In this document: one piece after another, positions 7,291 to 27,774 of the stretch
Position numbering within the stretch: the first letter of the stretch is position 1
Layout: the number at the start of each line of letters is the position of its first letter
Origin: a virus
Direction: 5' to 3' (one strand)
DNA: 28,179 bases
Virus record (IMG/VR): IMGVR_UViG_3300044955_000021
Coordinates: 1-28,179 of that record
Translations under genes and position numbers: made by a program
Notes under the pieces: model-generated
Databases searched by the model: none
What the model was told of the DNA's origin: nothing
The model's input: the letters and a program-made list of their open reading frames with translations, nothing else

Positions 7291-7424
7291 ATGATGTGTT
7301 GAAAGACTTTGCATCATTCCTGCATGATGATCGTGTTGGCTTTGTAAACTCAATTACATTCACCATCCATGGTGGAGAGAATGGAGATGTTACATTCACA
7401 TGCAAGCCCCAAAGCGTGGAGTAA
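7188..7424 (+). CDS. Small hypothetical protein overlapping the exonuclease
   Basis: This 78-residue acidic protein begins MEPTNEGNIFKYSFFYEHDN and ends with a beta-rich segment (ITFTIHGGENGDVTFTCKP). AGGAG at 7175-7179 stands eight bases before its ATG, supporting this start although it lies 103 bases inside the exonuclease frame. Its composition is that of a normal folded protein, while the exonuclease frame over the same bases is Ser/Thr low complexity. I conclude that the overlap is selected for this frame. Its 3' end overlaps the HNH gene by 25 bases. No family is recognised. Confidence 0.7.
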   Translation: MEPTNEGNIFKYSFFYEHDNGDDSTVYKARSMFLDDVLKDFASFLHDDRVGFVNSITFTIHGGENGDVTFTCKPQSVE

Positions 7425-7771
7425 AATGTAGAGCAGGAGATACTTGGACAGAGTCTAGGTATTTTCAGTTCATACGTACAGCATTACGTGGAGCGTTCTC
7501 TCGCTACCCTGTCAAGTATCAAGTATTGCAGGAAGCAAAGAGGATTGTTAGTGGTCAGCGTCATAAGTACGAACACCAATGCGCCTCATGTAAAGACTGG
7601 TTCAAAGCGAAGGAAGTTCAAGTAGATCACATCAAACCGGCAGGGTCACTGAAGTGCTACGATGATCTTCCTTCTTTTGTATCTAATCTGTTCTGTGAGA
7701 AAGACAACCTTCAAGTGCTATGTAAGCCTTGCCATAAGGCTAAGACAGCAGAGGAGCGTAAGAAGAAATGA
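7400..7771 (+). CDS. HNH endonuclease of phage replication cluster
   Basis: This 123-residue nuclease has two zinc knuckles, CASC (Cys61, Cys64) and CKPC (Cys108, Cys111), framing the HNH core: VDHIKP (Asp76, His77), DNLQVLC (Asn103) and the final His112. Its N-terminus (TWTESRYFQFIRTALR, then RYPVKYQVLQEAKR) is recalled from free-standing HNH proteins in the replication region of many phages. It occupies a position where T7-like phages need an endonuclease for host DNA breakdown or branch resolution, so I infer a metabolic role and not a homing role. It overlaps its upstream neighbour by 25 bases and the phosphoesterase by ATGA. Junction specificity cannot be judged from sequence. Confidence 0.85.
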   Translation: MQAPKRGVKCRAGDTWTESRYFQFIRTALRGAFSRYPVKYQVLQEAKRIVSGQRHKYEHQCASCKDWFKAKEVQVDHIKPAGSLKCYDDLPSFVSNLFCEKDNLQVLCKPCHKAKTAEERKKK

Positions 7772-24770: not shown

Positions 24771-25265
24771 TTATTGAGCGATTTCGTAAACGGTTAACAT
24801 TGAAGTAGTATTTCCATAGTTAAACTGGTTTGCATTTGCTGTAAGACCCTGATACTGAATTTCATAAGTAATGGGAGCAGTGGTGCTAGGAGTATCCATG
24901 TACTGCTCTGTTTCTTTAACCATCACGTTAGCAGTGTACATAGCATTAGCCATTCCTGTTGCGTCAGTCCATACAGCAGAACCGTTACGCATTACCCTAG
25001 ACCTGTAACCAGTCCATGTTCCATAAGAATCTAGGTATGCTTGCTGTGTCCATACTAATAGAAACTTACTATTATTAAGTTTTGGCGTCAGAGTAATGCT
25101 AAGGTTAGATGTATTCCAGTTAGTGTCAGCATAAGACATGGCTATACTATATGTAGTGTGTTGTACCTGAACAACACTACCAGCTACATCAATCCCCAAG
25201 TCTGCCGCAGTAGGCGTAGAACCATCAGGTTTCTGGAGGGTATCAACCTTAAGAATTGAAGCCAT
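24771..25265 (-). CDS. Small fibre-tip protein, paralogue 2 (164 aa)
   Basis: It begins MASILKVDTLQKPDGSTPTA, a common N-terminal motif of phage fibre proteins, then VVQVQHTTYSIAMSY and beta-rich sequence (NLSITLTPKLNNSKFLLVWT) with the end MLTVYEIAQ. The strand order and end match the 201-residue gene upstream (VLQVQTAQY...NITP...FLTVMEVEQ), so the two are paralogues. Its first 17 bases overlap the end of the HNH gene inserted between them. The role is probably receptor contact or tip decoration. Confidence 0.75.
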   Translation of the reverse strand: MASILKVDTLQKPDGSTPTAADLGIDVAGSVVQVQHTTYSIAMSYADTNWNTSNLSITLTPKLNNSKFLLVWTQQAYLDSYGTWTGYRSRVMRNGSAVWTDATGMANAMYTANVMVKETEQYMDTPSTTAPITYEIQYQGLTANANQFNYGNTTSMLTVYEIAQ

Positions 25266-25740
25266 AGTTTACCTCCAGTTTATTCTTCTTGCTAAGGTTT
25301 AAATAAGCAGGTAGTAGCTGTAGATTCCACCATACGTGTAAGCCACACACAGTATCACCCTGAAGCGGTACAATGTGGTCTACATGATGTTCTATACCAG
25401 TTGCTTTGCTACGCTCGTCACGCATCTCATACACCCAGTTAATAACATCTAGGTCATCTTCAGATAACCATTTAGGTGTAGCGTTAAGTTTAACAGCATT
25501 ACGTTTAGCTACGTAGCCTACCCATTTATGTTTGTTTTCAGCGTAGTAGTCATCCATAAGAGTTTTAATCTTCTCTGGGTTACTACGTTGGTATTTCTTT
25601 ACATCCTGCTTACGACACTCTACGCACTTATGGTCGTATGTCTGACGTTCAGCAACATGGCCACGCTTACAAGCAACACCAGTGAAGTAACGGTTTAAGC
25701 CTTTAGAGATAGCTTCAAGGCGGTTGAGTATACTAGCCAT
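25249..25740 (-). CDS. HNH homing-type endonuclease inserted in fibre genes
   Basis: This 163-residue nuclease has an N-terminal zinc-binding segment (YFTGVACKRGHVAERQT, then CVEC; Cys24, His28, Cys39, Cys42) and the HNH core EHHVDHIVPL (Asp121, His122), NLQLLP (Asn139) and NLSKKNK. It is typical of free-standing phage homing endonucleases and has no role in fibre assembly. Its ATG overlaps the stop of the 201-residue fibre gene and its last 17 bases overlap the start of the next fibre gene. It begins MASIL, the same five residues as that next gene, as if insertion copied the start. Probably a mobile intergenic element. Confidence 0.85.
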   Translation of the reverse strand: MASILNRLEAISKGLNRYFTGVACKRGHVAERQTYDHKCVECRKQDVKKYQRSNPEKIKTLMDDYYAENKHKWVGYVAKRNAVKLNATPKWLSEDDLDVINWVYEMRDERSKATGIEHHVDHIVPLQGDTVCGLHVWWNLQLLPAYLNLSKKNKLEVNYGFNS

Positions 25741-26318
25741 TATTGTTCCACCTCCATTACCGTTAAGAATGTAGGGGTTACTAGCTGTTCAGTAGTGCTT
25801 CCTGTCCATGATGTGCGTCCTACTGTAACTGTAGTATCTCCACTAGACTGAACTTTCCGTACTGCTATCAACTGCTGTGAAGACTGCCCATGTAACCACG
25901 GGACAGTGAATGTTCCATTTACGCTAGAGTTGTTGCCCTCAAAACCCCCGTTGTCTGTCCCAGAAGGGTTAAATGTCATTTGTCCAGAAGAACCCCACGC
26001 AGTACCCATTAGCGAAGGGATATTAGCACCATTAGAACGGACACGAAGACCCCAATCTCCACTATCTGTAGATATACCCATAGAGGAACAAAATGTTATT
26101 AAGAACAATGAAGTAGATTTTACGGGTGTAATATTAAGACTAATAATATCCCAGTCTCCACTAGCGGAAATAATACCGTTATACTGTGCGGTCTGTACTT
26201 GAAGTACCTTACCCATGTTGCCACTGGACGGAATAGTCACCGTCTCTGTGCTTGTGCCATCTTCAGGAGACAGGATTAACTGTCCCCCAGATGGTTTATT
26301 TAATGCAATATTTGCCAT
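25740..26318 (-). CDS. Small fibre-tip protein, paralogue 1 (192 aa)
   Basis: The protein begins MANIALNKPSGGQLILSPED, then TSTETVTIPSSG, a known fibre N-terminal module, followed by VLQVQTAQYNGIISASGDWD and a beta-rich domain ending FLTVMEVEQ. The frame is open to 26345, but the ATG at 26318 starts the conserved module and is preceded by GGTGG, while the earlier start would overlap the fibre gene. It is a paralogue of the genes at 24771 and 23828. It sits right after the long fibre and could cap it. Confidence 0.75.
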   Translation of the reverse strand: MANIALNKPSGGQLILSPEDGTSTETVTIPSSGNMGKVLQVQTAQYNGIISASGDWDIISLNITPVKSTSLFLITFCSSMGISTDSGDWGLRVRSNGANIPSLMGTAWGSSGQMTFNPSGTDNGGFEGNNSSVNGTFTVPWLHGQSSQQLIAVRKVQSSGDTTVTVGRTSWTGSTTEQLVTPTFLTVMEVEQ

Positions 26319-26319
26319 G

Positions 26320-27774
26320 TTATACCACCGTCCAAGTTGAACCATCAGGAATAGTTACGGTCACGCCATCAGCAATAGTTACTGGGCCGAATGTACCTGC
26401 ATTCTTTCCTGAAGTGATTGTGTAGTTTGAAGAGATGGTCTGTGAGTTTTCCCAGAAGATGCCTTCTTTAGCACCAGCTTCTAAAGGCTGACCACCCTGA
26501 GTGAATGTTGTAGCGTCTACGTTGCCTGACACACTAATGTTACTTTGGAATGTACCACCAGCACTTGCACTAACTGTATCAGCTACTTGAAAACTACCAA
26601 AGGCAAGGATGTTAAGTTCATCACCTACTGTTGCACCTGACGTTAATGTAACGGCAGTAGAGGTAGATGTATAATCTGCTCCACTCTCCAGTACAACACC
26701 ATTAAGGATTACAATCTCTGTTCCTACAGTTAACGCTAGTACGTTAGTATTATCATCAGCACCAGTAAACACTGTCTGTCCTGCTGTAGCAGTATAGAAG
26801 TATTTATTGAACGCAGCAACCTGAGCAGACGCAGCAGCAATCCAACTACTACCGTCCCATATCTTCATGACAGTATCAGTAGTGTTAAAGTATAGAGCAC
26901 CTGTTACTAAGGGGTTGCCATCATTATCTACGCTAGGGTCAGAGGCTTTAGCACCTAAGTAACGATCATCAAAGTTATCAAGAGATGCTGCTGCAGCTGC
27001 TGCGCTGTTTGCTGCTGATGTTGCAGAGGCTGCCGAAGCAGTTGCTGAGTTAGCAGAGGCTGTAGCCGAGGACGCAGCATTGCTTTCACTTGTTGATGCT
27101 GCTGAGGCTGACGTAGAGGCTGCTGTAGCCGAATCATCTGCTTTAGCTGCGTAGTGCAATGCAGAATAACCAGATATACCTACTAATGGGCCTGTCTGTA
27201 CGCTGTACTGACTGTCTTCTGGATGCGATGCAAATGTCTTTGCTGCATTTGCTGCTGTTTTAGCAGACCAGTAAGAGAACTCTCCATCTGCCACAAAGTC
27301 AGTGCTTGATGCCCATTCTTGAGCTTTAGCTTCTGATGTAGCTGCGTCGTTAGCACTAGCATTTGCTGCAATAGCACTATTACTTGCATTAGTTTCTGCT
27401 GTCTCTGCTCCAGTTTGAGCAGCTAATGCTGCAGCCACAGCATTAGCTACATCCTGCGTATCACCATAAATAGCAAGTGTATTTTGATAAGATGTTTCTG
27501 ATGCAGTTGCTGAGTTAGATGAGGCTGTAGCGGAGTTAGCTGCTGCTGTTGCGCTATTGGCTGAATTAGTTTCTGATGTAGCTGCATTAGTAGCAGACGT
27601 ACTAGCAGATGAGGCTGAAGAAGCTGCATTAGTTTCTGAGGTACTAGCAGCAGAAGCAGAAGAAGCTGCATCAGTGGCAGACTGTGCAGCTTCTTGGGCA
27701 TTAATAGTTATTTCATCTAAGGCTGCGGTATCCGATGTAGTGCCGGAACCCCCTAAACCACGATAGATTGCCAT
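26320..27774 (-). CDS. Long tail fibre protein with Ala/Ser coiled-coil shaft (484 aa)
   Basis: A short anchor (MAIYRGLGGSGTTSDTAALD) leads into about 250 residues of degenerate Ala/Ser/Thr/Asn repeats (for example SASAASTSETNAASSASSAS) that form a trimeric coiled-coil-like shaft. A module with ALYFNTTDTVMKIWDGSSW follows, then beta-rich sequence and the common end GPVTIADGVTVTIPDGSTW-TVV. The repeats make short antisense frames that are not genes. AGGAG precedes the ATG. It is the first gene after the capsid terminator and is probably the main adhesin shaft. Confidence 0.85.
   Translation of the reverse strand: MAIYRGLGGSGTTSDTAALDEITINAQEAAQSATDAASSASAASTSETNAASSASSASTSATNAATSETNSANSATAAANSATASSNSATASETSYQNTLAIYGDTQDVANAVAAALAAQTGAETAETNASNSAIAANASANDAATSEAKAQEWASSTDFVADGEFSYWSAKTAANAAKTFASHPEDSQYSVQTGPLVGISGYSALHYAAKADDSATAASTSASAASTSESNAASSATASANSATASAASATSAANSAAAAAASLDNFDDRYLGAKASDPSVDNDGNPLVTGALYFNTTDTVMKIWDGSSWIAAASAQVAAFNKYFYTATAGQTVFTGADDNTNVLALTVGTEIVILNGVVLESGADYTSTSTAVTLTSGATVGDELNILAFGSFQVADTVSASAGGTFQSNISVSGNVDATTFTQGGQPLEAGAKEGIFWENSQTISSNYTITSGKNAGTFGPVTIADGVTVTIPDGSTWTVV

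What the first reader, a model, noticed from the sequence alone, without database searches (positions are those of the whole stretch)
25249..25756. HNH gene fits exactly between two fibre paralogues and copies the next start
The nuclease gene begins by TAATG overlap with the upstream fibre gene and ends by a 17-base overlap with the downstream one. Its N-terminus MASIL(N) equals the downstream MASIL(K), with 12 of 17 bases shared. Insertion may have duplicated the target start codon region, so that the nuclease took over the original ribosome binding site and the fibre gene got a new one. A homing nuclease here could also spread the flanking host-range genes.
Basis: partly seen in the sequence, partly recalled or inferred. 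Interest (0 to 1): 0.5.

Follow-up and report, generated by a model that had tools for sequence, protein, structure and literature searches.

The report
Nuclease that steals a gene's start
A small virus gene for a predicted DNA-cutting enzyme has landed on the first codons of a tail-fibre gene, uses that gene's own start signal, and carries a reworded copy of those codons so the fibre gene stays whole; the same pattern is seen in several other phages.

Summary
Two related contigs lack the nuclease. In both, the fibre gene begins TAATGGCTAGTATACTCAAAGTAGAT. The nuclease's first 17 bases are exactly this start, so the nuclease copy is the original and the fibre's copy is the new one. The window's 495-base fibre gene differs from the empty-site gene at 8 bases: 7 lie in the first 21, and all 8 are synonymous. 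The fibre has a new ribosome-binding sequence inside the nuclease gene. Of 80 related nuclease ORFs, only L001, the same nuclease at the same site, contains MASIL.

The pattern recurs. With one fixed 42-base cap, 6 of 9 nuclease-bearing versus nuclease-free comparisons show an altered cap on an otherwise similar gene; 0 of 6 nuclease-free controls do. In 4 of those 6 the nuclease also sits at the original start position behind the original GGAGG or upstream sequence. A second nuclease in two relatives carries an altered 3' gene end.

I read this as a homing unit made of a nuclease plus a recoded end of its target gene. That the cap prevents self-cutting is inferred; no cutting was tested. Closest known: yeast WHO elements and fungal mitochondrial mobile ORFs.

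The parts
25249..25740 (-). nuclease gene, 163 aa, predicted HNH/endonuclease VII-like
   Evidence: phrog_1035 'endonuclease VII' E=2.6e-24; conserved C24, C39, C42, D121, H122, N139, N148 in a 20-sequence alignment; AlphaFold mean pLDDT 84.7, pTM 0.50; best viral structure matches are HNH proteins
25724..25740 (-). captured original start of the fibre gene, ATGGCTAGTATACTCAA, now the nuclease's first codons
   Evidence: 17 of 17 bases equal to the fibre start in nuclease-free L083 and L082
25751..25755 (-). GGAGG, original ribosome-binding sequence, now ahead of the nuclease
   Evidence: GGAGG at the same distance from the start codon in window, L083, L082, L090, L095 and L001
25245..25265 (-). 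recoded cap: first 7 codons of the fibre gene, same amino acids, 7 bases changed
   Evidence: codon comparison with L083, no amino-acid change
25272..25276 (-). GGAGG, new ribosome-binding sequence of the fibre gene, inside the nuclease's 3' coding end
   Evidence: sequence
24771..25265 (-). downstream fibre gene
   Evidence: 8 of 495 bases differ from nuclease-free L083, 7 of them in the first 21; weak match to tail fibre phrog_6942
25740..26345 (-). upstream fibre paralogue; likely start at 26318 (MANIALNKPSGG)
   Evidence: ORF; related genes in L083 and L084; no family match

Best explanation
The nuclease gene is a free-standing homing-type element that inserted after the 17th base of the fibre gene. 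It now uses that gene's start codon, first codons and ribosome-binding sequence. The unit that moved is the nuclease plus a recoded copy of the fibre's first codons with a new ribosome-binding sequence, so both genes are made. Shown: order of events (empty-site alleles), capture of the start, recoding, and the same cap pattern elsewhere. Inferred: that the nuclease cuts the uninvaded gene start, that the recoded cap (together with interruption of the site) protects the carrier, and that donor-templated repair moves nuclease and cap together. The cap probably came from another phage's version of the gene rather than by mutation in place, since it swaps a serine codon AGT for TCA and natural alleles with TCA exist.
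For: Empty alleles L083 and L082. Fibre gene 8/495 differences, 7 in the first 21 bases, all synonymous. L001: 96% identical nuclease, same arrangement. L095 start resembles the cap, 18 of 21 bases. Other phages at a fixed 42-base cap, occupied versus empty (cap; rest): window/L083 7/42; 1/453. SP8/JenK1 dpdA 12/42; 41/558. FritzHoffmann/ChristophMerian dpdA 12/42; 26/558. JG012/PAJD-1 dpdA 8/42; 5/558. ESCO3/9g clamp 15/42; 14/558. FoX1/FoX3 primase 13/42; 46/558. Six empty/empty controls: 0/42 in four, 1/42 in two. Start position: SP8 shares 129 unbroken bases upstream and 7 from the start with JenK1; ESCO3 shares 137 and 6 with ChristophMerian; JG012 37 of 40 upstream bases with PAJD-1, GGAGG kept. 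The ESCO3 nuclease matches a different family (HNH_3, phrog_99). Mirror case: nuclease 2 in L084 and L090 has a 126-base altered 3' end of the long fibre gene (48 of 126 bases differ from the window, then 0 of 63).
Against: No cutting, mobility or immunity was tested. 3 of 9 pairs lack a clear cap excess: Vibrio D69/D181 (7/42 v 26/294, P 0.1) and Klebsiella RCIP0112 and TUMS_K1 against VLC3 (8/42 v 27/174; 1/42 v 10/174), and these three show no start capture. FritzHoffmann and FoX1 keep roughly the start position but not the original upstream bases. The caps in SP8 and FoX1 include amino-acid changes, so recoding is not purely synonymous. In T4, characterised free-standing nucleases cut hundreds to thousands of bases from their gene (PMC2988022 passages), unlike the site inferred here. 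Caps in the first analysis were set by eye; one search used one fixed length, but the pairs were not a random sample.
Confidence: 0.72

Rival explanations
1. Loss rather than gain: the ancestor carried the nuclease and L083 and L082 lost it by recombination between the two similar starts.
For: The two starts are similar (12 of 17) and could recombine; only two empty sites with the same start are known, both from one sample series.
Against: A crossover between the two starts would leave AAG GTT at codons 6-7 if it fell at or before base 17; L083 and L082 read AAA GTA. Deletion would thus need further changes. L090 and L095 are also empty at this site with other codons, and Nonagvirus empty alleles far outnumber occupied ones (8 empty v 4 occupied of the 12 records read at the dpdA site).
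Confidence: 0.06
2. The nuclease did take over the start, but the altered cap is only a leftover of recombination with a diverged donor (co-conversion), with no role in protection from cutting.
For: Natural alleles differ in these codons, and caps in SP8 and FoX1 carry amino-acid changes. Co-conversion around homing sites is established (PMC2988022 passages).
Against: In nuclease-free pairs this end of the gene is the most conserved part (0 or 1 of 42), so a neutral donor would not be expected to be most diverged exactly there; the divergence stops within 21 to 168 bases.
Confidence: 0.25
3. The MASIL match is chance or a common start motif, and the nuclease is an ordinary gene between two fibre genes.
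For: 12 of 17 or better occurs in 6 of 528 start pairs; MASILKVD is a recurrent fibre start; related nucleases often begin M-EIISR, loosely similar.
Against: 17 of 17 match to the empty-site start, plus L001/L082 34-base identity across the junction; MASIL is in 1 of 80 related nuclease ORFs, the same-site L001.
Confidence: 0.02

Closest known systems
WHO elements of Torulaspora and Lachancea yeasts (PMC7282813; abstract and sections 10 and 13 read)
   Same: Homing unit is a nuclease gene plus a resistance-conferring end of the target gene; homing replaces one end of the target gene and leaves it functional.
   Different: Replaces the 3' end of FBA1 and leaves a gene fragment; LAGLIDADG-type protein with zinc finger (recalled for the class); nuclease transcribed on its own. 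Here the 5' end is replaced, no fragment remains, and the nuclease takes over the target's start codon. Cleavage was shown there, not here.
Mobile ORFs in Glomus mitochondria (PMC3630166; abstract and passages seen)
   Same: Endonuclease ORF carries a new end of atp6, atp9, cox2 or nad3 and makes a hybrid gene.
   Different: C-terminal ends in a eukaryotic organelle; GIY-YIG or LAGLIDADG enzymes; no start capture described in the passages seen.
Free-standing HNH and GIY-YIG homing nucleases of T4-like phages (PMC2988022; passages seen)
   Same: Intron-less, between genes, translational overlap such as mobE UAAUGA with nrdA.
   Different: Described cut sites lie hundreds to thousands of bases away; the passages seen describe no captured start or recoded gene end.
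F-CphI, endonuclease VII-type homing nuclease of cyanophage S-PM2 (PMC6083498; abstract and passages seen)
   Same: Endonuclease VII-like chemistry in a free-standing phage homing nuclease.
   Different: Self-protection comes from an intron in psbA, not from a recoded gene end; the DHHRN residues were not shown for the window protein.
Engineered home-and-rescue drive in Drosophila (PMC7968924; abstract and passages seen)
   Same: Nuclease unit placed at the end of a gene with a recoded rescue copy.
   Different: Artificial, CRISPR-based, 3' end; named only as an analogy.

Membership tests
HNH / endonuclease VII-like nuclease | Sequence match to a curated family | tested here: met
   phrog_1035 'endonuclease VII' E=2.6e-24. 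Pfam HNH only 11.5 bits, below its 21.4 cut-off; no NCBIfam match.
HNH / endonuclease VII-like nuclease | Conserved metal and catalytic residues | tested here: met
   C39 and C42 invariant; C24, H28, H119, D121, H122, H135, N139, N148 in at least 90% of 20 sequences. The catalytic role is inferred from family knowledge.
HNH / endonuclease VII-like nuclease | Beta-beta-alpha metal fold | tested here: inconclusive
   Model has strands 118-122 and 140-144 and helix 145-151, but no PDB match with E below 0.001; 21 viral predicted structures match at E 0.001 or less, several named HNH, mostly with TM-score below 0.5. No related solved structure by sequence.
Free-standing homing element | Present in some alleles and absent in close relatives at the same site | tested here: met
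   Window and L001 occupied; L083, L082, L090, L095 empty.
Free-standing homing element | Cuts the uninvaded allele and is copied into it | not testable with these tools
   Needs an enzyme assay and a mixed infection.
WHO-type element (nuclease plus replaced gene end) | Target gene end differs from the uninvaded allele while the rest matches | tested here: met
   7/42 v 1/453 in the window; 6 of 9 pairs overall.
WHO-type element (nuclease plus replaced gene end) | Duplicate target fragment left on the far side as a second homology arm | tested here: not met
   Only 17 bases of the original start remain, as the nuclease's own first codons; no longer fragment in the junction sequence.
WHO-type element (nuclease plus replaced gene end) | Resistance of the replaced end to cleavage | not testable with these tools
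   Needs an enzyme assay.

The most novel reading that the evidence does not exclude
A general class of phage homing unit: an intron-less nuclease that cuts a conserved gene end, takes over that gene's start or stop signals, and travels with a recoded 'rescue' cap that restores the gene and blocks re-cutting. It has arisen with at least two nuclease families and at tail-fibre, dpdA, clamp and primase genes, and shows up as a sharp patch of divergence at one gene end next to a nuclease.
Probability: 0.5. Interest if true: 0.75.

Novelty: new variant of a known kind. Interest (0 to 1): 0.62.

Why it matters
It answers how an intron-less nuclease gene can sit at a gene's start without breaking the gene or cutting its own genome: it reuses the gene's start and supplies a reworded one. 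The signature is simple enough to scan for across phage genomes. It also points to a testable cut site for each nuclease (the uninvaded gene end), which is usually unknown. Annotation follows too: a patch of odd codons at a gene end beside a nuclease is part of the mobile unit, and start codons there should be called with care.

Tried and rejected
Chance similarity of the two starts: rejected by the empty alleles. L085 as a further allele: rejected, unrelated gene with the same 17-mer. A general rule that nuclease starts copy the next gene's start in the same genome: not seen. In one search I compared nuclease start with downstream start for the distinct sequences among 80 loci; apart from L001 (five residues) no convincing shared N-terminus appeared (best nucleotide counts 14-15 of 24, some from unlikely TTG starts). 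This is expected if the new start is recoded, and means empty relatives are needed. Klebsiella RCIP0112 and TUMS_K1 against VLC3: no capture, no cap. Vibrio D69 against D181: weak; the D69 nuclease reading frame has an in-frame stop near its N-terminus; left as it is. Fetched but not compared with an empty relative: Shewanella SppYZU01 (L097), Salmonella TU03 (L099), Klebsiella RCIP0036 (L118). PDB fold search: nothing useful. Third nuclease of the window (7400-7771): the neighbouring gene was not found in 5 related contigs. Literature: ten searches run or attempted in the held open-access library (one search was an error); none of the listings or passages I saw describes start capture with a recoded cap in phages. 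Subscription papers are not held, so this is not proof of absence.

Full report
What is there. On the minus strand a 163-residue nuclease gene (25249-25740) lies between two fibre-like genes. Its ATG overlaps the stop of the upstream gene by one base (TAATG) and its 3' end overlaps the downstream gene by 17 bases. The two starts share 12 of 17 bases and the residues MASIL. Among 528 pairs of gene starts in the window, 6 reach 12 of 17 or more, so that alone proves little.

Empty sites. Two contigs of one sample series, L083 and L082, have both fibre genes and no nuclease. Their junction reads GGAGGTAGCGGCATAATGGCTAGTATACTCAAAGTAGATACCCTCCAG. The window nuclease begins with the first 17 bases of that fibre gene exactly; the window fibre does not (14 of 21 bases). 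L001, with a 96% identical nuclease, shares 34 unbroken bases across the junction with empty L082. The original start is therefore the nuclease's, and the fibre's start is the newcomer. Two more empty sites, L090 and L095, carry other codons for MASILKVD.

The recoded cap. The window fibre gene and the L083 fibre gene differ at 8 of 495 bases; 7 are in the first 21, none changes an amino acid. The serine codon changes from AGT to TCA, which single mutations do not reach synonymously; L095 shows that TCA alleles exist in related phages, and its start matches the cap at 18 of 21 bases. The fibre now has its own GGAGG eleven bases ahead of its ATG, inside the nuclease's last codons. A simple deletion running from the nuclease start into the fibre start would not give the AAA GTA seen in the empty alleles, so insertion is the better direction.

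The protein. The best family match is phrog_1035, labelled endonuclease VII (E=2.6e-24); Pfam and NCBIfam do not reach their cut-offs. Cysteines and an HxDH...N...N pattern are conserved in 20 relatives. An AlphaFold model (mean pLDDT 84.7, pTM 0.50) finds viral HNH proteins but nothing useful in the PDB. Relatives begin M-EIISR or similar; of 80 ORFs examined, only L001 contains MASIL.

Is it general? I took named phages with related nucleases and looked for close relatives without them. With the same 42-base cap for every pair, differences in cap and rest were: window/L083 7/42 and 1/453; SP8/JenK1 dpdA 12/42 and 41/558; FritzHoffmann/ChristophMerian dpdA 12/42 and 26/558; JG012/PAJD-1 dpdA 8/42 and 5/558; ESCO3/9g clamp 15/42 and 14/558; FoX1/FoX3 primase 13/42 and 46/558; D69/D181 tail 7/42 and 26/294; RCIP0112/VLC3 8/42 and 27/174; TUMS_K1/VLC3 1/42 and 10/174. 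The first six have one-sided P of 1e-4 or less; the last three do not. Six nuclease-free pairs gave 0/42 four times and 1/42 twice. The pairs are not independent (two share the dpdA site in Nonagvirus, though their nucleases share only 92 of 162 residues), were not drawn at random, and the P values assume independent sites. In SP8 most of the difference extends to about 168 bases, so its 'rest' includes part of the cap.

Start capture in those pairs. SP8 shares 129 unbroken bases upstream and 7 from the start codon with JenK1. ESCO3, whose nuclease belongs to another family (HNH_3, phrog_99), shares 137 and 6 with ChristophMerian. JG012 shares 37 of 40 upstream bases including GGAGG with PAJD-1, with the start codon at the same place. 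FritzHoffmann and FoX1 have their starts at about the same place with different upstream bases. The Klebsiella and Vibrio pairs show no capture.

A mirror image. In L001/L084 and L090 another nuclease (Pfam Endonuclease_7, E=1.2e-22) sits at the 3' end of the long fibre gene. The last 126 bases of that gene differ from the window at 48 positions in each, then 63 bases are identical; L084 and L090 differ from each other at 5 of those 126. In L084 the nuclease's last codons and stop (ACGGTGGTATAAC) are the fibre gene's original end. This is one gene cassette with an altered 5' cap at one nuclease and an altered 3' cap at the other.

Mechanism proposed. The nuclease cuts the end of the uninvaded gene; repair from a carrier copies nuclease and recoded cap together; the nuclease is expressed from the gene's own start signal; the cap restores the gene and, I infer, can no longer be cut. 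Steps shown by sequence: insertion at the start, capture, recoding. Steps inferred: cutting, protection, movement as a unit. Spread of flanking fibre domains by the nuclease remains possible but unproven: variable domains differ on both sides among alleles, and the upstream ones differ between L083 and L082 too, which have no nuclease. Window and L083 share the whole downstream variable domain (129 of 129 residues) and not the upstream one (41 of 120).

Place among known systems. WHO elements in yeasts (PMC7282813; abstract and two sections read) and mobile ORFs in Glomus mitochondria (PMC3630166; abstract and passages) replace a 3' gene end with one carried by the nuclease element. T4 free-standing nucleases (PMC2988022; passages) are described as cutting far from their insertion. 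F-CphI (PMC6083498; abstract and passages) is protected by an intron. A paper on nuclease genes at exchange boundaries in phages (PMC10448857; outline, abstract and passages) reports nucleases near essential genes; 'start codon' and 'recognition site' do not occur in its main text. I therefore call this a new variant of a known kind.

Noticed in passing
window 7400-7771 (+): Another HNH nuclease gene (Pfam HNH E=1.7e-5, phrog_1985); its end overlaps the start of the next gene (7768) by 4 bases (ATGA). Possibly a further case; no close relative found.
   Followed up: partly
L001 2029-2466; L090 1986-2420: Endonuclease_7-family nuclease at the 3' end of the long fibre gene with a 126-base altered 3' cap; the L001 copy ends in the fibre gene's original stop region.
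   Followed up: yes
window 24771-26345; L083, L082, L090, L095, L001: Fibre paralogues with near-constant N-termini and swapped C-terminal domains, joined by a conserved junction block, in nuclease-free alleles too.
   Followed up: partly
L112 3258-3797 (Escherichia phage ESCO3): HNH_3 nuclease on the start of the sliding-clamp gene; the clamp now starts with GTG and has a recoded cap.
   Followed up: yes
L119 1501-2070 (Vibrio phage D69): Related nuclease with an in-frame stop near its N-terminus, between a collar fibre and a tail gene whose start reads MASINFP (MTINFP in D181).
   Followed up: partly
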